A stretch of 64,000 nt of DNA from Anaerolineales bacterium (lineage in GTDB: Bacteria; Chloroflexota; Anaerolineae; Anaerolineales; UBA4823): NCBI GenBank assembly GCA_016932955.1, contig JAFGBV010000026.1:1-64000 (forward strand), read 5' to 3'. The stretch's first letter is position 1. Every line of letters starts with the position of its first letter. Below, in pieces: positions 10,153 to 62,723 of the stretch. A program made the position numbers and the translations under genes. The notes beneath the pieces were generated by a model. That model saw only the letters and a program-made list of their open reading frames with translations, was not told the origin of the DNA and did no database searches.

Positions 10153-12443
10153 ACACTGACCCGCTTTCTCCTTCAGATACCAGCCAGCCGCGGACAAACC
10201 CCGCCGCTTACTATGCCCATGCCTGCGGCGAGCCTTACCGCCGCGAGCCGTTCTGGTTGGATAGCTTTGCCGCCGTTGCTGAGCGTATCCTGAATGACCT
10301 CCAGCCCAGCACTGTTCTCGATGCCGGTTGTGGGATTGGCCTGCTGGTCGAGGCGCTGCGCCAGAGAGGCATCTCGGCCTGGGGAATTGACCCCTCCGCA
10401 GATGCTATCGAAGACATTCCTCCTGAGATCAAGCGCTTCTGCCAGATTGGCTCCCTCGCCGACCCCTTCCCCCAGCCACATTACGATCTGGTCGTCTGCG
10501 CAGAAGCAGTGGCAGGTCTGCCTCTCCAGACAGCCGAAAGCATCATTGCCAACCTCTGCCAGCACGCAGACCAGGTGCTGTTTTCGTCGGCGTCGTTCAG
10601 CCCCAGCGAGACCGCGCCAGAAGGCGGTAAAACACCCGATCAATGGACTGCGCTATTCCTGCACCATGCTTTTGTACACGATGTTGATTTCGACGCTTCT
10701 TTCATAACGCCCTGGGCGGTGCTCTTGCGGCGCACACCCCTCCCACCTGAGCAGGCATTGCAGCAGATGGTGAACGTTTATGCCCGCAAACTCTGGCAGT
10801 TGCACCAGGAAAGCGACATCCGCCGCGAGAGGAACATCAGCCAGAAGCAAGAGCTGGTCCAGCGGGCGCTCATCCACCAGCAAGAGATGCAGGAAAAGAA
10901 CAGCCTCATCGCCGCCCGTGAGGTGGAGATCCAATACCAGAAACAAGTGGTTGAAGCGGTCAAGGCTGAGCGCGATGCCATCCTGAACAGCACCTCCTGG
11001 CGCTTCATCAGCCGCATCCAGCGCTTGCGAGAGCGGCTCATCCCCATCGGCAGCCAACGTGAGGCAGCCTTGCGCTTCATGATCCAGGCTCCACAGCGCG
11101 TGCGTAGCGAAGGCTTGCGCGCCCTGTTCCGGTTTCAACCTGCTGTGCCCCCCCCTCCCCCGCCTGTGCCGCTCCTGGAGCCGCCGCCCGGCGTGGAGAT
11201 CATCAACATTGAGCCTGTCCCTGCCCACCCTCCCGCAATAACAGAAGGCGAGGCGGATGAGCGCTTGCTGCAAGGTTGGCAGGCCAGCAAGCGTCACATG
11301 CCTCTGCGCCAGGATTGGATCCAGCGCGGGCATGAGCACTTCGCTGGGAAGCGCATCCTGTTCGTCCTGCCGATTGCTGCAGCGGGGGGTGGGGCAAACC
11401 TGATCCTGCTCGCCGCCAGGGCGATGCGCAAGATGGGCGTGGATGTCCAAATTTACAATCTCAATCCCTATCGCAGCGGATTCGAACAGGCCTACCCGAG
11501 CCTTAACATCCCCGTCATTTATGGTGAGATTGCTGAGTTGCCTGAAATTGCCATCCGCTTTGATGCAGCGGTAGCCACGTCTTACATCACCGTCTACTGG
11601 CTTGCCCCGGCCGCCTCCCGCCGGCCCGATCTGCTCATCGCCTACTATATTCAGGATTACGAGCCATATTTTGAGCTGCCCGGTTCTGAGGAATACCAGA
11701 AGGCTGCCGCGTCTTACACCCTCTTGCCTGGCCTGGTACGTTGCTGCACCACGCAGTGGATCGCTGATGAGATCCTGCGCCTACATCCTGTTGCTGAGCA
11801 AACTACTTCGCAGAAAGAGCATATCCCCGTCCTCGGCCCCAGCCTGGATTGTGACCTCTTCTTGCCTCGCCCTCGCCGCTGGCAGGCTGGAAGCCAGCCT
11901 CTGCGCATTGCCGCCATGATCCGCCCAAGCACCGCCCGGCGCAACCCGCGCCTGACGATGGAAGTGATGCAGCGCGCCAGCCAGGAGTTCGGCAACCGCG
12001 CGGAGCTCATCCTCTTCGGAGCAGATTTACCCGAGCTGGTGGAAGCTCAGTTGCCACTCACCTTCCCCTTCAAGCTTACTGGGCGCCTCAAACCCGAGCA
12101 GGTTGCCAGCCTGATGAACGAAGTGGATATCTTTGTGGATTACTCCACCTTCCAGGGTCTCGGTCTCACCGCCCTGGAAGCCATGGCTTGCGGCGTCGCA
12201 ACAGTAGTGCCGCAGCAAGGCGGCACAGCCTCCTTTGCCCAGCATGAGGAAAACTCCCTGATTGTGGATACCCGGGATGAAGAGGCCTGTTTTGCCGCCC
12301 TGCAGCGTCTGGTGAACGATGATCAACTCCGGCTCAAATTTCAAAAGAACGGCATCCTCCAGGCAGCCCATTTTTATCCCGAGCAGCCCGCCTTCCGGCT
12401 ACTGGCAGCCCTCTTCCCGGCTGACGCCCAAGGAGGCGCATGA
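10149..12443 (+). CDS. Methyltransferase / coiled-coil / GT-B fusion
   Basis: 764 residues from the ATG overlapping the previous stop. Residues ~14-205 are a SAM methyltransferase (TVLDAGCGIG, AWGIDPSADAIE) paralogous to the protein at 2386. Residues ~206-300 are a coiled coil ending in NSTSWRFISRIQ, like the stalk in the protein at 6758. A proline-rich linker follows at ~330-350. Residues ~399-764 are a GT-B domain with GKRILFVLPIAAAGGG, RPSTARRNPRLT, FVDYSTFQGLGLTALEAMACG and QQGGTASFA. One chain could both extend and methylate a glycan, which is a known way to terminate chains; that is inference here. The methyltransferase has ALPL-type changes after VVCAEAV, so its activity is less certain. 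Confidence 0.85.
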   Translation: MNTDPLSPSDTSQPRTNPAAYYAHACGEPYRREPFWLDSFAAVAERILNDLQPSTVLDAGCGIGLLVEALRQRGISAWGIDPSADAIEDIPPEIKRFCQIGSLADPFPQPHYDLVVCAEAVAGLPLQTAESIIANLCQHADQVLFSSASFSPSETAPEGGKTPDQWTALFLHHAFVHDVDFDASFITPWAVLLRRTPLPPEQALQQMVNVYARKLWQLHQESDIRRERNISQKQELVQRALIHQQEMQEKNSLIAAREVEIQYQKQVVEAVKAERDAILNSTSWRFISRIQRLRERLIPIGSQREAALRFMIQAPQRVRSEGLRALFRFQPAVPPPPPPVPLLEPPPGVEIINIEPVPAHPPAITEGEADERLLQGWQASKRHMPLRQDWIQRGHEHFAGKRILFVLPIAAAGGGANLILLAARAMRKMGVDVQIYNLNPYRSGFEQAYPSLNIPVIYGEIAELPEIAIRFDAAVATSYITVYWLAPAASRRPDLLIAYYIQDYEPYFELPGSEEYQKAAASYTLLPGLVRCCTTQWIADEILRLHPVAEQTTSQKEHIPVLGPSLDCDLFLPRPRRWQAGSQPLRIAAMIRPSTARRNPRLTMEVMQRASQEFGNRAELILFGADLPELVEAQLPLTFPFKLTGRLKPEQVASLMNEVDIFVDYSTFQGLGLTALEAMACGVATVVPQQGGTASFAQHEENSLIVDTRDEEACFAALQRLVNDDQLRLKFQKNGILQAAHFYPEQPAFRLLAALFPADAQGGA

Positions 12444-35873: not shown

Positions 35874-35902
35874 TTGCATTAGAACATATGTTCGGGTATA
35901 AT
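35874..35902 (+). promoter_or_regulatory. Promoter with LexA/DinR-type box
   Basis: TTGCAT (35874-35879) and TATAAT (35897-35902) are 17 bp apart. The spacer contains the perfect 12-bp palindrome GAACATATGTTC (35882-35893), which matches the GAAC-N4-GTTC core of the Gram-positive-type LexA box. A bound repressor would block RNA polymerase. The transcript covers a VOC protein gene and tag, a DNA repair gene. The -35 is weak. An 8-base core is expected about once by chance in 64 kb, so location is the main argument. Confidence 0.7.
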
Positions 35903-35921
35903 AGAATCAGTGAGGTGAACG

Positions 35922-36863
35922 ATGGCTATCAACTATCCTGCCAATTCTCGTATCCGTGCCTATGGCAGAGCACGGATCGAAATCGCTCAAAAAGCAAAAA
36001 CAAACCAGGATTGGGCGCAACTTTGGAAACCACCAGCCCATCCCTTCCCTTTTATCTGGGGCGAGCGCTGGAAACAATCGCTGGAATACAAAGTGGACGA
36101 TTTCCCCGCTGAAATCGGCTTCTATATCGATATTTTAGGACTGCCGGTGAACGCATTTGACCCCGATTATGCTATGTTCACCAGTCCGCGCGGTGATTTC
36201 TACATCACCGTTGTTCCCGCTACCGAAGATAACGAAAGCACGCCTCCCGATTCCTTCCGCATCCAGTTCATGATCGAGGATATCCTCGAGACGACGACAG
36301 AGCTGGAACAGCGCGGAATCACCTTCGAGCAGTCTCCTCAGCCTTGCCAACCTGGCTCTTCTTTATACATCGGCTATTTCCGCACTCCGCATGGCATTTG
36401 CATTGATCTTTGGGGAGTTGTGACCGAGAACGCAGAGTCGTCTGACGGTATGGACGAGTCCTTGGAGGATGAAGAGTTTGAAGAAGAGGACAACCTTCAT
36501 TACGACACTCCCATAAAACTTCCCTCAGCGCAAGAAGAAGATACAGACGATTGGGATGATGATGAAGACGAGGAGGATGAATGGGAAGGTGATGAAGAAG
36601 AAAAAGGGAAAGAATATATTCCAACCCGTGTCCTAGCCGCAAAGCCACCCGAACAACAGCCTTACATCCCCTCGCTTGCACAACGGCGCGTTGCACCCTC
36701 GGCGCCCACAACGCAGCCGCCCACAAACTGGCCCATCGCCCACCAGACACCCCTTGCCCGGGCAAAACCTGCTATACCGGGCAACAATGGTGGCAGCCAG
36801 CAACCAGCACCGCCAAAGCCTCATGATAAACCCCCAGAACCAGAATATGTTGATGACGAATAA
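35922..36863 (+). CDS. VOC (glyoxalase-fold) protein with acidic tail
   Basis: 313 residues; GAGGTGAAC precedes the ATG. Residues ~65-165 form a VOC domain (EIGFYIDILGLPVNAFD, FTSPRGDFYITVV, YFRTPHGICIDLWG). Residues ~175-230 are extremely rich in Asp and Glu (for example DDWDDDEDEEDEWEGDEEE), and the rest is Pro/Gln-rich and disordered. VOC proteins include glyoxalases, dioxygenases and resistance proteins; metal ligands here were not assigned. The tail could mimic nucleic acid or bind a basic partner. The gene overlaps tag and lies behind a LexA-type box, which hints at a damage-related role. Confidence 0.75.
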   Translation: MAINYPANSRIRAYGRARIEIAQKAKTNQDWAQLWKPPAHPFPFIWGERWKQSLEYKVDDFPAEIGFYIDILGLPVNAFDPDYAMFTSPRGDFYITVVPATEDNESTPPDSFRIQFMIEDILETTTELEQRGITFEQSPQPCQPGSSLYIGYFRTPHGICIDLWGVVTENAESSDGMDESLEDEEFEEEDNLHYDTPIKLPSAQEEDTDDWDDDEDEEDEWEGDEEEKGKEYIPTRVLAAKPPEQQPYIPSLAQRRVAPSAPTTQPPTNWPIAHQTPLARAKPAIPGNNGGSQQPAPPKPHDKPPEPEYVDDE

Positions 36864-39550: not shown

Positions 39551-40570
39551 ATGAATCTTGCAATTCAAACCGAAAAACTGGGCCGCATTTATAAGATCCG
39601 CGGCGGCAAAAAAAGCGAACCCCGTCAGTTGGTCGCCCTGGATGATATCAATCTGGAGGTGCAGCGCGGGGAGCTATTTGGCCTGCTGGGTCCCAATGGT
39701 GCCGGGAAAACTACCCTGATCAAAGTCCTCACTACCCTCCTGGCGCCCAGCAGCGGCTATGCCAGGGTTGCCGGGCATGATGTGGCTAAGGATCCTGAAA
39801 AGGTTCGCCAGCGGATCAATATGGTTTCCGGAGGAGAATCCTCCGGTTATGGTCTGCTCACTGTGCGCGAGAACCTGTGGATGTTTTCCCAGTTCTACGG
39901 TATTCCCTCAGTCGAAGCCAACCGGCGCATCAAATCACTCTTAGAGGTGGTGGGATTGGGTGACCGGATCAACACCAAATCATCTGATCTTTCCACAGGT
40001 CTGCGCCAGAAGATGAATATCGTGCGCGGCTTCATGACGGATCCAGATGTACTTTTCCTGGATGAGCCAACCCTCGGTCTGGATGTGGGCGCATCACGCG
40101 AAGTGCGCAAGTTCATCCGCCAATGGGTCGATGCCGATGCCCAGCGCACGCTCCTGCTCACCACCCATTACATGGTTGAAGCCGATGAGTTATGCGACCG
40201 GGTCGCTATCATCAACCATGGTCGTGTGCTCGCCTGTGATACGCCTACCAAGCTCAAGCATCACCTTCAGAGTGAATCGATCTTTCGCCTGGAGGTTAGC
40301 CCGCTCAACGGCACCCGGGTCGAAACATTCCAGAATCTGCCTGGCGTGTGCAATGTCAACCATAGCCCGCAGGATGGATATGCCGTTTTGCAATTCATCC
40401 TCGAAGCAGAGCAGGTGCTGGCAGATGTGGTGAACACGCTGACCACCAACCAGATCCGCATCCTGAACCTGCAGAAATGCGAGCCAACCCTGGAAGATGT
40501 CTTCGTTTACCTGGTTGGGCACAGCATGGAGGAGGCGGAACGGATGGAAGAAGGGTCAGAAGAGCCATGA
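39551..40570 (+). CDS. ABC exporter ATP-binding subunit
   Basis: 339 residues from the ATG at 39551; upstream in-frame sequence crosses a hairpin and is not protein-like. Walker A is GPNGAGKTT, the signature reads DLSTGLRQKMNI, Walker B is DVLFLDEPTLGLD and the H-loop is LLTTHYM. The C-terminal ~90 residues form the DrrA-like extension. It energises export by the two ABC-2 permeases that follow; drug, antibiotic or lipid export is typical of the family. Its stop overlaps the next start (ATGA). Confidence 0.93.
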   Translation: MNLAIQTEKLGRIYKIRGGKKSEPRQLVALDDINLEVQRGELFGLLGPNGAGKTTLIKVLTTLLAPSSGYARVAGHDVAKDPEKVRQRINMVSGGESSGYGLLTVRENLWMFSQFYGIPSVEANRRIKSLLEVVGLGDRINTKSSDLSTGLRQKMNIVRGFMTDPDVLFLDEPTLGLDVGASREVRKFIRQWVDADAQRTLLLTTHYMVEADELCDRVAIINHGRVLACDTPTKLKHHLQSESIFRLEVSPLNGTRVETFQNLPGVCNVNHSPQDGYAVLQFILEAEQVLADVVNTLTTNQIRILNLQKCEPTLEDVFVYLVGHSMEEAERMEEGSEEP

Positions 40571-41433
40571 GCACCGATACTGGGAAAACCCTGCTTATTG
40601 ATCGCAAGATCAAGAATAACACCGGCTGGCGCCTCTTCATCCAAACAGTCTTTGCCCGCGCTTATCCACGCATAATCGGTCAGCAGCGCGAGAAATCCTG
40701 GATGTTCTTCGATATCTTCCTGCCTATGCTGGGGGTTGCCGCGTATGTCTTTGTTTATCGAGCTATTGGTGCGCCAGAGGATTATGTAGGCTTTGTCATC
40801 GTCGGCGGGGCAATGACTGCGTTCTGGATGAATGTGCTTTGGAGCATGTCCAGCCAGTTGTATTGGGAGAAAGAACAGGGCAACCTGGCGTTATACATCA
40901 TGGCGCCCAATTCGATGATGGCTATCCTGCTTGGCATGGCGCTCGGCGGGATCGTAGCCACCACGCTGCGCGCCCTGGTGATCATGCTGCTGGGCAGCCT
41001 CATTTTCAACGTGCAATACGTCGTCACCAGTTTTTCTCAGCTTTTCGCCGTCTTCATGCTTGCATTGGTAGCACTGTATGGCATGGGAATGATGTTCGCC
41101 TCCCTCTACCTGCTCCTCTCGCGTGAAGCATGGCATATCTCGAACCTGATGACCGAACCCGTCTTCCTGGCTTCGGGCTTTTACTTCCCGATCAAATCCT
41201 TCAATTTCTGGATCGCCGCCGCTGCCTCCATCATTCCACTCACCCTCGGCCTGGATGCCATGCGCCAGCTTGTCTTTGCCTCTGGCGCAAGCCTGGGCTT
41301 CCTCTCCGTTCAGATTGAAATTGCTATACTGGTGGTACTGTGCGTGATCTTTCTTACCGCGGCGCGATACCTTCTCGCCTATATGGAAAAGCTGGCCATC
41401 CGAGAAGGCCGCCTGACGGAAAACCGCCGCTGA
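40567..41433 (+). CDS. ABC-2 type exporter permease 1
   Basis: 288 residues with about six transmembrane helices (for example FDIFLPMLGVAAYVFVY, LGGIVATTLRALVIMLLGSLIF, FAVFMLALVALYGMGMMFASL). The EPVFLASGFYFPI segment is the usual ABC-2 motif before the last helices. It forms the membrane channel of the exporter together with the next gene product. Both permeases and the ATPase are in one operon with overlapping or close starts. Cargo unknown. Confidence 0.88.
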   Translation: MSTDTGKTLLIDRKIKNNTGWRLFIQTVFARAYPRIIGQQREKSWMFFDIFLPMLGVAAYVFVYRAIGAPEDYVGFVIVGGAMTAFWMNVLWSMSSQLYWEKEQGNLALYIMAPNSMMAILLGMALGGIVATTLRALVIMLLGSLIFNVQYVVTSFSQLFAVFMLALVALYGMGMMFASLYLLLSREAWHISNLMTEPVFLASGFYFPIKSFNFWIAAAASIIPLTLGLDAMRQLVFASGASLGFLSVQIEIAILVVLCVIFLTAARYLLAYMEKLAIREGRLTENRR

Positions 41434-58808: not shown

Positions 58809-59822
58809 TTGAGCGAAATCACACCCGTCATTTACCTGCTAGATGGTGAAGACGAGTTCGGCATCGCCGAGTTCCTGACTGCCATGCAAGCCAGGCTAGG
58901 CGATGCCGCCACTGCTGAAATGAACACTACCCGCCTGGATGGGCGTAGCGCTTCGCTGGAAGACCTGGATGGCGCATTGCGCGCCATGCCCTTCCTGGCA
59001 CCGCGCCGTCTGGTGATTTTCACCAATCCCCTGGCGCGCCTGAATACCCCAACCCTGCGCGATAAACTCAAAAAGATCCTGGAGAAGGCGCCGCCCTCTG
59101 CAGCAGTGGTGCTGGTTGAAGACCACCTGTTGACCGAAGAGAAGGAGCGTAAAAAGAATAAAACCCACTGGCTGGAAAAATGGGCATCTGATGCCGGTGA
59201 GCGTGTATATGTGCGCCATTTCTCGCTCCCCGTTGGCGAAGCCATGGCGCGCTGGATCATGGAACGTGCCAGGAGCGCCGGAGGTCAATTCACCTATCCT
59301 GCTGCAGCTGCCCTGGCAAACCTCGTGGGCGACCAGCCCCGCCAGGCAGTTCAGGAAATTGATAAGCTGCTCGCTTATGTGAATTACTCCCGACCGGTTG
59401 AAGTAGACGACGTAGAAAGCATGACCCCCCTCACAGCACCGGTGCGCGACTTTGCACTCGTCAATGCTTTGCGCGCCCGGAATGCCCGCCTGGCGCAAGA
59501 AATCCTGCACCGCATGCTCGCCGAGCAGGACTCCATTCCCCTCTTCCACTCAATTGTTTATCAGTTTCGCCAGCTTTTGCTGGCGCGGGAGATTCTGGAG
59601 GCGCACGGCAATGCAGAGGAGGTCGCCCGCCAATTGAAGATCCACCCCTTCGCTGCCAAACTGGCCCTCGAACAAGCCCACCGCTTTATTATGCCTGATC
59701 TAGAAGCCATCTACCACCACCTCCTGAAATTGGATGAGGCAATCAAGACCAGCCAGATGAGCGGAGAATTGGCGCTGGATCTGCTCATTATACAGTTAAC
59801 AACCCAGTCTGCGCACTATTGA
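58809..59822 (+). CDS. holA: DNA polymerase III delta subunit
   Basis: 337 residues from a TTG. The architecture fits HolA: an N-terminal domain (ITPVIYLLDGEDEFGIAEFL, APRRLVIFTNP), a central AAA+-like part (YPAAAALANLVGDQPRQAVQE) and a C-terminal helical collar (LALEQAHRFIMPDLEAIYH). It opens the sliding clamp during loading. The 3' end overlaps the convergent gene at 59788 by 35 nt. Confidence 0.88.
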   Translation: MSEITPVIYLLDGEDEFGIAEFLTAMQARLGDAATAEMNTTRLDGRSASLEDLDGALRAMPFLAPRRLVIFTNPLARLNTPTLRDKLKKILEKAPPSAAVVLVEDHLLTEEKERKKNKTHWLEKWASDAGERVYVRHFSLPVGEAMARWIMERARSAGGQFTYPAAAALANLVGDQPRQAVQEIDKLLAYVNYSRPVEVDDVESMTPLTAPVRDFALVNALRARNARLAQEILHRMLAEQDSIPLFHSIVYQFRQLLLAREILEAHGNAEEVARQLKIHPFAAKLALEQAHRFIMPDLEAIYHHLLKLDEAIKTSQMSGELALDLLIIQLTTQSAHY

Positions 59823-60036
59823 TCCCAAGCCAGAAATGGTTGGGCAGTACAGAACGCGTGGTGCGCACCTCGATCCCGGCAGCCTCCGGGCTTGCATTTC
59901 CAAGCGTCTTTGGGTGAACAAAGCACAGGTTAGGCATCGTGCCATATTTGCTGCGGTAGTAGTTCGCTGCCCGTGTGATCTTGGCAGAAACATCCGTTTT
60001 GGTGTCATTATCGAACCACAGCATCCCAATATTCAT
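59788..60036 (-). CDS. Small unknown protein, candidate SOS gene
   Basis: 82 residues; AGGAGGTG precedes the ATG. It begins MNIGMLWFDNDTKTDV and contains ANYYRSKYGTMPNLCFVHP, then VLPNHFWLGINS near the end. It has no signal peptide or membrane helix and looks like a compact soluble protein. I did not recognise a function. It is preceded by a near-consensus promoter with a LexA-type box, which suggests a role in damage response. Confidence 0.72.
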   Translation of the reverse strand: MNIGMLWFDNDTKTDVSAKITRAANYYRSKYGTMPNLCFVHPKTLGNASPEAAGIEVRTTRSVLPNHFWLGINSAQTGLLTV

Positions 60037-60091
60037 TTTGACACCTCCTCATCATCATTATCATTGGCGCATCATCGTCGCCTTAAACACA

Positions 60092-60120
60092 ATGATAACA
60101 GAACATTTGTTCTATGTCAA
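60092..60120 (-). promoter_or_regulatory. Near-consensus promoter with LexA/DinR-type box
   Basis: On the minus strand: TTGACA (60120-60115), 17 bp, TATCAT (60097-60092). The spacer contains the perfect palindrome-core GAACAAATGTTC (60112-60101), again GAAC-N4-GTTC. The layout copies that at 35874-35902. Repressor binding would cover the spacer and stop transcription of the gene at 60036. Confidence 0.75.
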
Positions 60121-60230: not shown

Positions 60231-62723
60231 ATGAAAAACCTTCCTCGCCTGGTCTTTGTGTTCCTTTACCTTACCGCCTTCATCCTCAGCTTGTTTATCC
60301 TGGTGAAACCAGGAGCTAATCTTTTTCATTACGCGCCAACCCTCAACCTAAATCTCTGCACGCCGGATGTCGGCTTTGCTTATCGCTGTCCGGTCAATTT
60401 ACCTCCCTCGATCTTTCCTCCAGATAGGGTGCTGCTTTATGAAGATGGGCAACCCCTCGCCCACGCCAGCAGCAGCCAGGTTGCAAGAGTGGGCAATGGC
60501 TCTTTCACCACGGAGGTAACCGCTGAAGGGCAGTATTTCATTTACCTTGCCCCTTACGAAAATAGCGATCCGTTGAACAATGGAAAATCCTATCAGGCTG
60601 ATTTTGCCCTTGCTTTCCTTCCAGAGAAAGAATATGTTCTCCTCTCACGCACCCTGGGCATCCTCTATTTTGGCCTGTTGCTCTCTGGCTTCGTGCACTT
60701 TTCCCGCTTTGTGCTAAAACAGCAAAGAATACCAGGTCCCCTTCAGTCCCTCCCTGCGCGGCTGCTGATGCTGGATGACTACCTTGCCCATGTGAAAGCA
60801 GTGATCGCTGGGATTGGCTCAGCTTTAAGTTCCGGATGGCATCCTTTCTTCCGCATCTGGGGAAAATTGTTCGTCACGACCGGCATCATCGCATATTGGC
60901 TGGTTTTCATGGAATGGCTCTTCCTGATTACCGGTGCTTCCTTCATGGAGCGCATGAGCCTGGGTGAGAAGCTTGGAATATTCCTCCTTTCTTCCCTGTT
61001 GCTCGCTCTGGTTGGCCTAGGCCTGCTCCTGATCTTTTGGGCCTTAGCCCTTGCCCTGCGCCTATCCCGCCTTTCTTGGCTGGCTTTGTTGATCGCTGAA
61101 TGGGTGCCAACTGTGTTGCTGACCACATTGATCGCATTATTGATCGACAATTTCACGTATGTGATCTTCCATTTCGGCATCCTCACCTCATCAGGCATCC
61201 TGCGTACGGCTTACGGCGTCTCGATCGTGCTGATCCTGTGCGCCGTTTACTGGCTCAGGCTGCAAGCATGGAGCAAAGAAAGCAGCACAGAAAGCGCGCC
61301 GGGAAATTTCCGCTGGCTGGCTGTCGTTACCAGCGGACTGGTTGCAATCTCGTTGCTCATAGCCGCCCTGCGCTACGATCCCAGACTTCCCACCGCTGAT
61401 TTTCCAGACCAGTCCGAGGCAGCCGCACTCGACCGTCCCAACATCATCCTCCTCGGCAGCGATGGGGTAACCGCCAAAAACATGTCCATTTACGGGTACG
61501 AACGGGATACTACCCCCAACCTTAGCCTGTTAGGCCGCACATCCCTGGTGGCAGAAAATGCATTTTCCAATTCAGGCAATACGCTCGGTTCAATCGCCTC
61601 GATCTTTACCAGCAAACTGCCAACCCAAACGAACGTGATGTACCCGCCCAACATCCTCCAGGGTCCAGACGCTTTTGAGCACCTGCCTGGTATCTTGTCC
61701 AGAGCAGGATACCAGACCATACAAATCGGTGTGCCGCACTATGTAGATGCTTACACCTTGAACATCCAGGATGGCTTTGACATTGTGAACCAGCGTTCGG
61801 TTCGCAAAGACCCTTTGGTCAGCGCCTGGCGCAATGCCGGATTCGACTTATCTGCATATTTCATCTACAAGCTGGAAGAAAAGATCACCAATCGCTTTCT
61901 GCATGCTTTTCATCTGGATACAATTGACAACCCATTCAGTGTTGTCACCCAGCCCACCTCCTGGTTGGATGATCGCCAAAAGGTGGATGAATTATTCAGC
62001 CTTCTGGATCAAAACGACGCCCCCCTCTTCATCCATGTGCATCTGATGGGAACCCACGGGCCCAAATTCACCTTCGATGAGGCGAAGTTTTCCCTAGGGC
62101 AGGAACAAAGCGAAGAATGGATGGTCGATTTTTATGATGACTCCATCCTTTCTTTTGACCAATATGTGGGCGAGATCGTTGAATACTTGAAAGCCAGCAG
62201 GCAGTATGATGACACGATCCTGATCATATACTCAGACCATGCGATGAAATTTGTAGTCAATCATCGCATCCCTATGATCCTGCACTTCCCCCAAGATCAA
62301 TATGCTGGGGCTATCTCCTACAACACCCAGAACATCGACCTGGCGCCAACGATCCTCGATTACCTGGAGTTACCTATCCCGGATTGGATGAATGGAAGCT
62401 CGCTCCTCTCCGTAAATCCGCTTCCTGACCGCTGGATTTATTCTGCTGGCCCAATCAACAGCAAAGCAATTCGAAGCGAGCAAGGCTGGACCCTGGATCT
62501 CAGCCAGATCGCCCCCCCGTTTTATCAGTTCCAATCCATCCAGGTGGTCGCCTGCGATCACTGGTATTCGCTTGATTTATGGACACAGTCATGGGATTCG
62601 GCGAGAGTCACCGGGCACACTGCCACCTGTTCCGAGAGCGACCTCCCTGCCAAAGATGAGATCGTGCAAAGCATTATCGATCTCCTATCAAGCCATGGTT
62701 TCGACACCTCCTCGCTGCGCTGA
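60231..62723 (+). CDS. Membrane-bound sulfatase / phosphotransferase (LtaS-like)
   Basis: 830 residues from the ATG at 60231 (GTG at 60228 is also possible). An N-terminal hydrophobic segment, then six or so membrane helices between ~140 and ~385, precede an alkaline-phosphatase-fold domain: RPNIILLGSDGV for metal binding, YGYERDTTPNL, FSNSGNTLGSIAS around the nucleophile and IYSDHAMKF for the second metal. The domain probably faces outside. It may add or remove sulfate or a phosphoalcohol on a surface glycan or polymer. Nucleophile identity (Ser or Thr) is not certain. Confidence 0.82.
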   Translation: MKNLPRLVFVFLYLTAFILSLFILVKPGANLFHYAPTLNLNLCTPDVGFAYRCPVNLPPSIFPPDRVLLYEDGQPLAHASSSQVARVGNGSFTTEVTAEGQYFIYLAPYENSDPLNNGKSYQADFALAFLPEKEYVLLSRTLGILYFGLLLSGFVHFSRFVLKQQRIPGPLQSLPARLLMLDDYLAHVKAVIAGIGSALSSGWHPFFRIWGKLFVTTGIIAYWLVFMEWLFLITGASFMERMSLGEKLGIFLLSSLLLALVGLGLLLIFWALALALRLSRLSWLALLIAEWVPTVLLTTLIALLIDNFTYVIFHFGILTSSGILRTAYGVSIVLILCAVYWLRLQAWSKESSTESAPGNFRWLAVVTSGLVAISLLIAALRYDPRLPTADFPDQSEAAALDRPNIILLGSDGVTAKNMSIYGYERDTTPNLSLLGRTSLVAENAFSNSGNTLGSIASIFTSKLPTQTNVMYPPNILQGPDAFEHLPGILSRAGYQTIQIGVPHYVDAYTLNIQDGFDIVNQRSVRKDPLVSAWRNAGFDLSAYFIYKLEEKITNRFLHAFHLDTIDNPFSVVTQPTSWLDDRQKVDELFSLLDQNDAPLFIHVHLMGTHGPKFTFDEAKFSLGQEQSEEWMVDFYDDSILSFDQYVGEIVEYLKASRQYDDTILIIYSDHAMKFVVNHRIPMILHFPQDQYAGAISYNTQNIDLAPTILDYLELPIPDWMNGSSLLSVNPLPDRWIYSAGPINSKAIRSEQGWTLDLSQIAPPFYQFQSIQVVACDHWYSLDLWTQSWDSARVTGHTATCSESDLPAKDEIVQSIIDLLSSHGFDTSSLR

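What the first reader, a model, noticed from the sequence alone, without database searches (positions are those of the whole stretch)
59788..60120. Second LexA-type promoter drives an unknown 82-residue protein
TTGACA, 17 bp containing GAACAAATGTTC, then TATCAT: the same arrangement as at 35874. One GAAC-N4-GTTC core is expected by chance in 64 kb, but two centred in promoter spacers are not. The protein (starting MNIGMLWFDND) has no recognised domain, so it may be an undescribed SOS gene.
Basis: partly seen in the sequence, partly recalled or inferred. Interest (0 to 1): 0.8.

Follow-up and report, generated by a model that had tools for sequence, protein, structure and literature searches.

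The report
Unstudied SOS gene of Chloroflexota bacteria
A small protein of unknown function in a Chloroflexota bacterium sits behind a DNA-damage (LexA) switch, and its relatives often carry the same switch, so it is probably an undescribed part of the bacterial SOS response.

Summary
In detail: on the minus strand TTGACA-17 bp-TATCAT (60120-60092) encloses GAACAAATGTTC and precedes an 82-aa ORF (60036-59788) with a ribosome-binding site and no Pfam, NCBIfam or PHROG family. In the 80 closest genomic relatives (of 222 found, Chloroflexota by title) an exact GAAC-N4-GTTC stands before the gene, or before its two-gene operon, in 55 of 80; 0 of 383 leaders of other conserved genes in the same loci have it. 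The same box precedes lexA (exact in 11 of 12 readable). In more distant relatives the gene often ends a longer unit, with lexA upstream in 23 of 40 loci, though in 0 of the 80 close ones. Partners vary: a small FtsK-type ATPase (40 of 80; 28 of 40) or a DUF6504-like protein (11 of 40; 8 of 20). Viral contigs carry the protein without the box. It is most likely a LexA-repressed SOS gene of a new family. Its role is inferred only: an accessory of DNA handling after damage, perhaps with an FtsK-type motor. Induction was not tested; the window's own genome was not available.

The parts
59788..60036 (-). 82-aa protein (c0), small alpha/beta protein of a new family
   Evidence: ORF; 813 homologues; no Pfam, NCBIfam or PHROG family; AlphaFold2 mean pLDDT 85.5, strands 5-8, 37-40, 55-59, 67-71 and a long helix 16-31
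60115..60120 (-). -35 hexamer TTGACA
60101..60112 (-). LexA-type operator GAACAAATGTTC inside the promoter spacer
   Evidence: exact in the leader of relatives in 55 of 80 loci
60092..60097 (-). -10 hexamer TATCAT, 17 nt from the -35
60042..60049 (-). Shine-Dalgarno-like AGGAGGTG, 5 nt before ATG
   Evidence: read
58809..59822 (+). holA (DNA polymerase III delta), convergent, overlapping the 3' end of the 82-aa gene by 35 nt; the same convergent neighbour occurs in 29 of 80 relatives
   Evidence: NCBIfam holA equivalog 6.7e-59; Pfam, also for the relative L024; cluster 4
35874..35902 (+). second LexA-type promoter, TTGCAT-17-TATAAT with GAACATATGTTC at 35882-35893
35922..36863 (+). 313-aa protein with a glyoxalase/VOC-type domain behind the second box; exact box also upstream of relatives in L277 (about 400 nt before the open frame) and L278, one mismatch in L276

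Best explanation
The gene is a LexA-repressed SOS gene. LexA binds GAAC-N4-GTTC in the spacer of a sigma-70-type promoter and blocks it; after DNA damage, RecA-stimulated self-cleavage of LexA (established for SOS, not shown here) frees the promoter and the small cytosolic alpha/beta protein is made. Regulation: well supported by conservation (about 0.93). Role (inferred, about 0.35): the protein is an accessory of DNA handling after damage, most likely a partner or regulator of an FtsK-type DNA translocase; in this window and in half of its close relatives the dedicated small FtsK-type gene is not next to it, so there it would act on the general FtsK or on another partner.
For: Box in the promoter spacer. 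Exact box in 55 of 80 leaders, at most 1 mismatch in 73 of 80, against 0 of 383 other gene leaders; 69 exact cores in 599,589 bp of these loci against 4 and 8 for two control patterns. lexA leaders exact in 11 of 12 readable; recA leaders one-mismatch sites in 11 of 12, two mismatches in 1, none exact. In 40 loci of a broader class sample, 81 exact boxes in 266,734 bp against 1 and 2 for the control patterns, 42 of them in a TTGACA/TATAAT-like context; lexA upstream on the same strand in 23 of 40, FtsK-like gene in 28 of 40. In 20 still more distant loci of the phylum an exact box lies within 900 nt upstream in 12. FtsK-type ATPase gene directly upstream in 40 of 80 loci, with the box in front of it exact in 27 and with one mismatch in 13 of 40. 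That ATPase: Pfam FtsK_SpoIIIE 7.7e-11, best structural match the FtsK motor, E 1.1e-12; a form from the class sample also has FtsK_alpha.
Against: No expression or binding data. 7 of 80 close relatives have at least 2 mismatches. lexA is within the fetched flanks in 0 of 80 close relatives. In the broad class sample only 16 of 60 have an exact box immediately before the gene or a close c1; of 33 re-read loci without an immediate exact box 30 have one within about 4.5 kb, in several only in front of lexA itself, and co-transcription is not shown. 3 of 40 extended loci have none within 4.5 kb, and 8 of 20 distant loci have none upstream in the stretch read. For the FtsK role: in 35 of the 40 close relatives without an adjacent c1 a clear c1 was found elsewhere in 1, weak hits in 26 and none in 8, so c0 persists without it; c1 is near c0 in only 1 of 20 distant loci, where DUF6504 is a commoner neighbour. 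The Walker A motif of c1 looks lost in some members (read). Viral copies have no box (0 of 35).
Confidence: 0.7

Rival explanations
1. SOS checkpoint protein: c0 is a small inhibitor of cell division that works like SulA, YneA or SidA, made only while DNA is damaged; the FtsK-type partner would link it to the division site.
For: LexA-type control, small size, FtsK-like neighbour in 40 of 80 loci. That small division inhibitors are common SOS products is recalled, not looked up.
Against: No Pfam family at E up to 1, so none of its curated models fits; viral contigs carry it without the box, which fits a division inhibitor only if the phage benefits.
Confidence: 0.2
2. Replisome or translesion-synthesis accessory: c0 acts at stalled forks together with a DUF6504-type protein.
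For: A DUF6504-like gene upstream on the same strand in 11 of 40 class loci and 8 of 20 phylum loci, mostly adjacent or overlapping (Pfam DUF6504 4e-6 for one); convergent holA neighbour in 29 of 80 and in the window. That DUF6504 is met with Y-family polymerases is recalled, not tested.
Against: DUF6504-like neighbour in 0 of 80 close relatives and in 0 of 35 viral loci; where Pfam DUF6504 was sought in 30 genomes, 17 had a match and the frames were small in nearly all; a convergent neighbour need not be functionally linked.
Confidence: 0.2
3. A phage protein domesticated by the host (or the reverse): a small phage factor put under LexA control so that host and prophage respond to damage together.
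For: 35 viral contigs encode it; 4 of 14 such records checked carry an HK97-type capsid gene over the cut-off; viral copies are scattered in the tree (15 label changes, at least 4 forced by well-supported branches).
Against: The tree has few columns and is poorly resolved; chromosomal copies share neighbours such as holA, and lexA in the class sample; no box in front of viral copies (0 of 35).
Confidence: 0.15
4. The box is bound by another regulator, or is a chance match.
For: GAAC-N4-GTTC occurs 25-69 times per genome in 12 relatives.
Against: Conservation in 55 of 80 leaders against 0 of 383 controls; the same layout before lexA and linkage to lexA in 23 of 40 loci.
Confidence: 0.04

Closest known systems
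LexA (DinR)-type SOS regulon with GAAC-N4-GTTC operators (Bacillus subtilis and other Gram-positive bacteria; PMC3323433, two passages seen, one on this motif)
   Same: same operator core, within sigma-70-type promoters; lexA itself carries it in the relatives
   Different: the regulated protein has no counterpart in the family libraries searched
RegPrecise 3.0 curated regulons, which include a Chloroflexi collection (5 genomes, 30 transcription-factor regulogs) and LexA in more than 25 groups (PMC3840689, six passages seen)
   Same: a LexA regulon of some Chloroflexi may be listed there
   Different: the passages do not name the regulated genes and the database itself could not be opened, so whether an orthologue is already listed as a predicted member is not known
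ftsK of Escherichia coli under the SOS promoter dinH (PMC4080785, start of abstract and passages seen)
   Same: an FtsK-type DNA translocase under LexA control, as c1 would be in relatives of the window gene
   Different: c1 is about 280-380 aa in the examples read, with no membrane domain named by Pfam, and is encoded with c0; E. coli FtsK is a 147-kDa protein with membrane-spanning regions; the window itself has no c1
EccC/EssC ATPases of type VII secretion
   Same: c1 matches them in sequence (4nh0, 2.4e-13) and fold
   Different: bit score far below the NCBIfam cut-off for EccC (32.8 against 346.55)
SulA / YneA / SidA SOS division inhibitors (recalled)
   Same: small SOS-controlled proteins
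   Different: no sequence relation found

Membership tests
LexA/SOS regulon (GAAC-N4-GTTC type) | exact operator overlapping the promoter | tested here: met
LexA/SOS regulon (GAAC-N4-GTTC type) | operator conserved before orthologues above background | tested here: met
   55 of 80 exact; 0 of 383 controls; broad class sample 16 of 60 immediate, 37 of 40 extended loci within about 4.5 kb; 12 of 20 distant loci
LexA/SOS regulon (GAAC-N4-GTTC type) | LexA present in the genome, and its own gene carries the same operator | tested here: met
   lexA-type match in 12 of 12 relatives' genomes; 11 of 12 readable lexA leaders exact, 1 with one mismatch, L126 not read. Not testable in the window's own genome
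LexA/SOS regulon (GAAC-N4-GTTC type) | LexA binding in vitro; induction by DNA damage that needs RecA and cleavable LexA | not testable with these tools
   needs an experiment
FtsK/SpoIIIE/HerA ATPases (partner gene c1, not the window gene) | FtsK_SpoIIIE domain and FtsK motor fold | tested here: met
   (over the Pfam cut-off for L049; the other example L065 gave only sub-cut-off AAA_16/NACHT hits); no c1 in the window
SulA/YneA-type division inhibitors | SulA or LysM-type domain | tested here: not met
   no Pfam family at E up to 1
HK97-type capsid A domain | fold and sequence profile match | tested here: inconclusive
AroH-type chorismate mutase / RidA-like fold | fold match | tested here: inconclusive

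The most novel reading that the evidence does not exclude
c0 is the constant effector of a Chloroflexota-specific SOS module (lexA, a small FtsK-type translocase, a DUF6504-like or a small membrane protein, and c0) that moves or clears chromosomal DNA at division during damage, and phages have taken up c0 to use or block that machinery.
Probability: 0.2. Interest if true: 0.8.

Novelty: new variant of a known kind. Interest (0 to 1): 0.6.

Why it matters
SOS regulons are best known from a few well-studied groups (recalled); I found no description of one in Anaerolineae in the listings searched (open-licence PMC papers only), although RegPrecise may hold a predicted LexA regulon for some Chloroflexi. 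A small protein without a known domain that is found in 76 of 199 sampled genomes of its class and 65 of 301 of its phylum, often under a LexA-type box and in part of the class beside lexA and an FtsK-type motor, is a concrete candidate for an unknown step of the damage response. Named strains that carry it (Bellilinea caldifistulae GOMI-1, L014; Anaerolinea thermolimosa IMO-1, L019) make the prediction directly testable.

Tried and rejected
Chance origin of the box: rejected by conservation and by controls. The one-mismatch count in the window is at chance, so I did not build on one-mismatch sites alone; about one leader of 270 bp in ten would hold a one-mismatch site by chance (my arithmetic).

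Capsid-derived protein: suggested by a weak PHROG hit and by HK97 A-domain rows in the fold searches; not supported by profile comparison (hhalign probability 0.2%, only six template proteins). A chorismate mutase-like fold is equally weak. The viral-structure library gave no match below E 0.001. Sequence search of the PDB with two alignments gave no row below E 0.06.

A partition function suggested by ParA/ParB neighbours in viral contigs: ParB_N in 11 of 35 and ParA-type AAA_31 in 6 of 35 records, directly beside c0 in 5 of 35 by my clusters (L083, L084, L103, L105, L106); phages often carry such genes (recalled), no control was made, so not used as evidence. A known defence system: c0 has no PADLOC hit; c1 matches SspH and mad8, which I take to be shared ATPase homology.

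A first parse of the lexA loci failed for most of them and was repaired; L126 stayed unread. In one search the immediate-leader test looked negative for many distant homologues; longer stretches showed longer units headed by boxes and often by lexA.

The 60 loci come from 59 of the 76 genomes with a match (G021 gave two; the others were not fetched). The 20 loci are 20 of the weaker matches. Of 222 confirmed genome loci only the best 80 were kept by the tool. Distances and gene calls in fetched loci come from simple ORF scans, so start sites are approximate.

Full report
THE OBSERVATION. The minus strand reads TTGACA-TA-GAACAAATGTTC-TGT-TATCAT from 60120 to 60092, followed by AGGAGGTG and an ATG at 60036 that opens an 82-aa ORF ending at 59788. 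The window holds three exact GAAC-N4-GTTC cores against 0.58 expected from shuffles, none of 100 shuffles reaching three. One is this site, one is the sister site at 35882, and the third (61787) lies inside a sulfatase-type ORF. At one mismatch the window is at chance level. The sister promoter is TTGCAT-17-TATAAT, weaker in its -35 box than the finding implied.

WHERE IT OCCURS. The genome scan confirmed 222 loci and kept the best 80, whose titles are Chloroflexota/Anaerolineae-type records. 35 viral contigs also encode it. By profile it is in 76 of 199 sampled genomes of the class and 65 of 301 of the phylum. The window's protein pairs with L001, an Anaerolineales genome, in a tree with few columns, without strong support.

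IS THE BOX CONSERVED? For each of the 80 loci the leader (200 nt before to 70 nt after the start) of the gene, or of the ATPase gene c1 directly upstream if there is one, was scanned. Exact boxes: 28 of 40 without c1 and 27 of 40 with c1, together 55 of 80; at most one mismatch in 73 of 80; the seven others are L004, L009, L036, L062, L071, L073 and L080. L073 has only 135 nt upstream. Controls: 4 exact cores in 570,252 bp outside those leaders; 0 of 383 leaders of other conserved genes in the same loci; 69 exact cores in all 599,589 bp against 4 and 8 for two control patterns. Around exact boxes the flanks read TA-GAAC-AWAW-GTTC-TA, A/T-rich. None of 35 viral copies has an exact box in its leader, and the two exact cores in 316,476 bp of viral loci lie more than 1 kb from c0.

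IS IT A LexA BOX? In 12 genomes that carry the gene every one has a lexA-type and a recA match. Of 13 strong lexA matches 12 leaders could be read: exact box in 11, one mismatch in 1, each right behind a TTGACA-like hexamer. Of 12 full-length recA genes 11 have a one-mismatch site and 1 a two-mismatch site; 9 end in GTGC or GTAC with one mismatch only, and 11 of 12 sit right behind TTGAC. GAAC-N4-GTTC is the known LexA motif of Bacillus (PMC3323433, passage). A paper showing it for the chloroflexote Dehalococcoides is recalled by me and was not found in the library.

NEIGHBOURS. In 40 of 80 loci a ~283-aa gene (c1) lies upstream on the same strand, within 60 nt in 37 of 40. c1 is an FtsK/EccC-type ATPase: Pfam FtsK_SpoIIIE 7.7e-11 for L049 (a second example, L065, gave only sub-cut-off AAA hits), EccC 4nh0 2.4e-13, model pLDDT 86.7 whose best match is the FtsK motor (E 1.1e-12). 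Some members seem to lack Walker A (read). I searched 35 of the 40 genomes whose c0 has no adjacent c1: a clear c1 elsewhere in one (E 6.9e-27), weak hits (E 7.7e-9 or worse) in 26, none in 8. The window contains neither c1 nor lexA. lexA was not found in the fetched flanks of any of the 80 close relatives (0 of 80). holA is the convergent neighbour in 29 of 80 loci and in the window, where the two genes overlap by 35 nt.

BROADER SAMPLE. From the class search I fetched 60 loci of 59 genomes. Only 16 of 60 have an exact box immediately before the gene or a close c1. Longer stretches were then read for 40 loci: 33 that lacked an immediate exact box, 5 that had one, and 2 new ones. 37 of 40 have an exact box within about 4.5 kb upstream; L225, L236 and L246 do not. 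lexA lies upstream on the same strand in 23 of 40 and an FtsK-like c1 in 28 of 40. In several loci there is a box before lexA and another between lexA and the next gene; in others only the one before lexA, so that c0 would be in a lexA-headed unit; co-transcription is inferred. One class form of c1 examined also has an FtsK_alpha domain (L240). These 40 loci hold 81 exact boxes in 266,734 bp against 1 and 2 for the control patterns. In 20 distant loci of the phylum 12 have an exact box within 900 nt upstream and 8 do not. A DUF6504-like gene lies upstream of c0 in 8 of these 20 and in 11 of the 40 class loci, but in 0 of 80 close relatives and 0 of 35 viral loci.

HOW IT LIKELY WORKS. Shown by comparison: a conserved LexA-type operator in the promoter of c0 or at the head of its unit. 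Established for SOS in general: LexA repression relieved by RecA-stimulated cleavage (PMC4080785, passages). Inferred: c0 is made after DNA damage. Inferred with low confidence: it assists an FtsK-type DNA translocase or another DNA-handling machine. c0 is the constant element (the loci were chosen by it), its partners vary, so c0 should have a function that does not need c1. E. coli offers a parallel for a LexA-controlled FtsK (same paper).

NOVELTY. The operator and the SOS logic are known. The regulated protein family and the lexA / small FtsK / c0 arrangement were not found described in eight literature searches of an open-licence library, of which I saw listings and a few passages. RegPrecise 3.0 has a Chloroflexi collection and many LexA regulons (passages); I could not see whether it lists an orthologue of this gene, which would make the regulation, though not the function, a known prediction.

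Noticed in passing
window 35874-36863: The sister LexA-type promoter drives a 313-aa protein with a glyoxalase/VOC-type domain and an acidic stretch; of 24 genomes searched 4 have a match, and the three strong ones (L276-L278) have a site upstream (exact in L277 and L278, one mismatch in L276; in L276 and L277 400-500 nt before the open frame), so this may be a second SOS gene.
   Followed up: partly
window 61787-61798: Third exact GAAC-N4-GTTC core, inside a sulfatase-type ORF; probably chance.
   Followed up: partly
window 59788-59822: The 3' ends of the SOS gene and holA overlap tail to tail by 35 nt, and the convergent order is kept in 29 of 80 relatives.
   Followed up: partly
L225-L264: lexA upstream of c0 in 23 of 40 loci of the class sample, mostly with an FtsK-type gene between; a DUF6504-like protein upstream of c0 in 11 of 40.
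   Followed up: partly
genome of L019 (G006, contig C4): c1 occurs twice with identical scores in opposite orientation (10699-11418 + and 40197-40916 -), and boxes lie at mirrored places (10568 and 41036, 19518 and 32086) about the middle of a 51,614-bp contig: the contig looks like its own inverted duplicate, perhaps an assembly artefact.
   Followed up: no
L147, L148 (genomes of L058 and L049): Second, shorter recA-like match (E 7.8e-59 and 1.4e-50); the one in L148 has an exact box about 205 nt upstream.
   Followed up: no
L135-L146: recA sites are regularly one base off (mostly GTGC or GTAC instead of GTTC), unlike the lexA boxes, which could mean weaker LexA binding at recA.
   Followed up: no
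L081-L115: Viral contigs carry c0 without a LexA box, a few beside ParA- or ParB-type genes; 4 of 14 records checked have an HK97-type capsid gene over the cut-off.
   Followed up: partly
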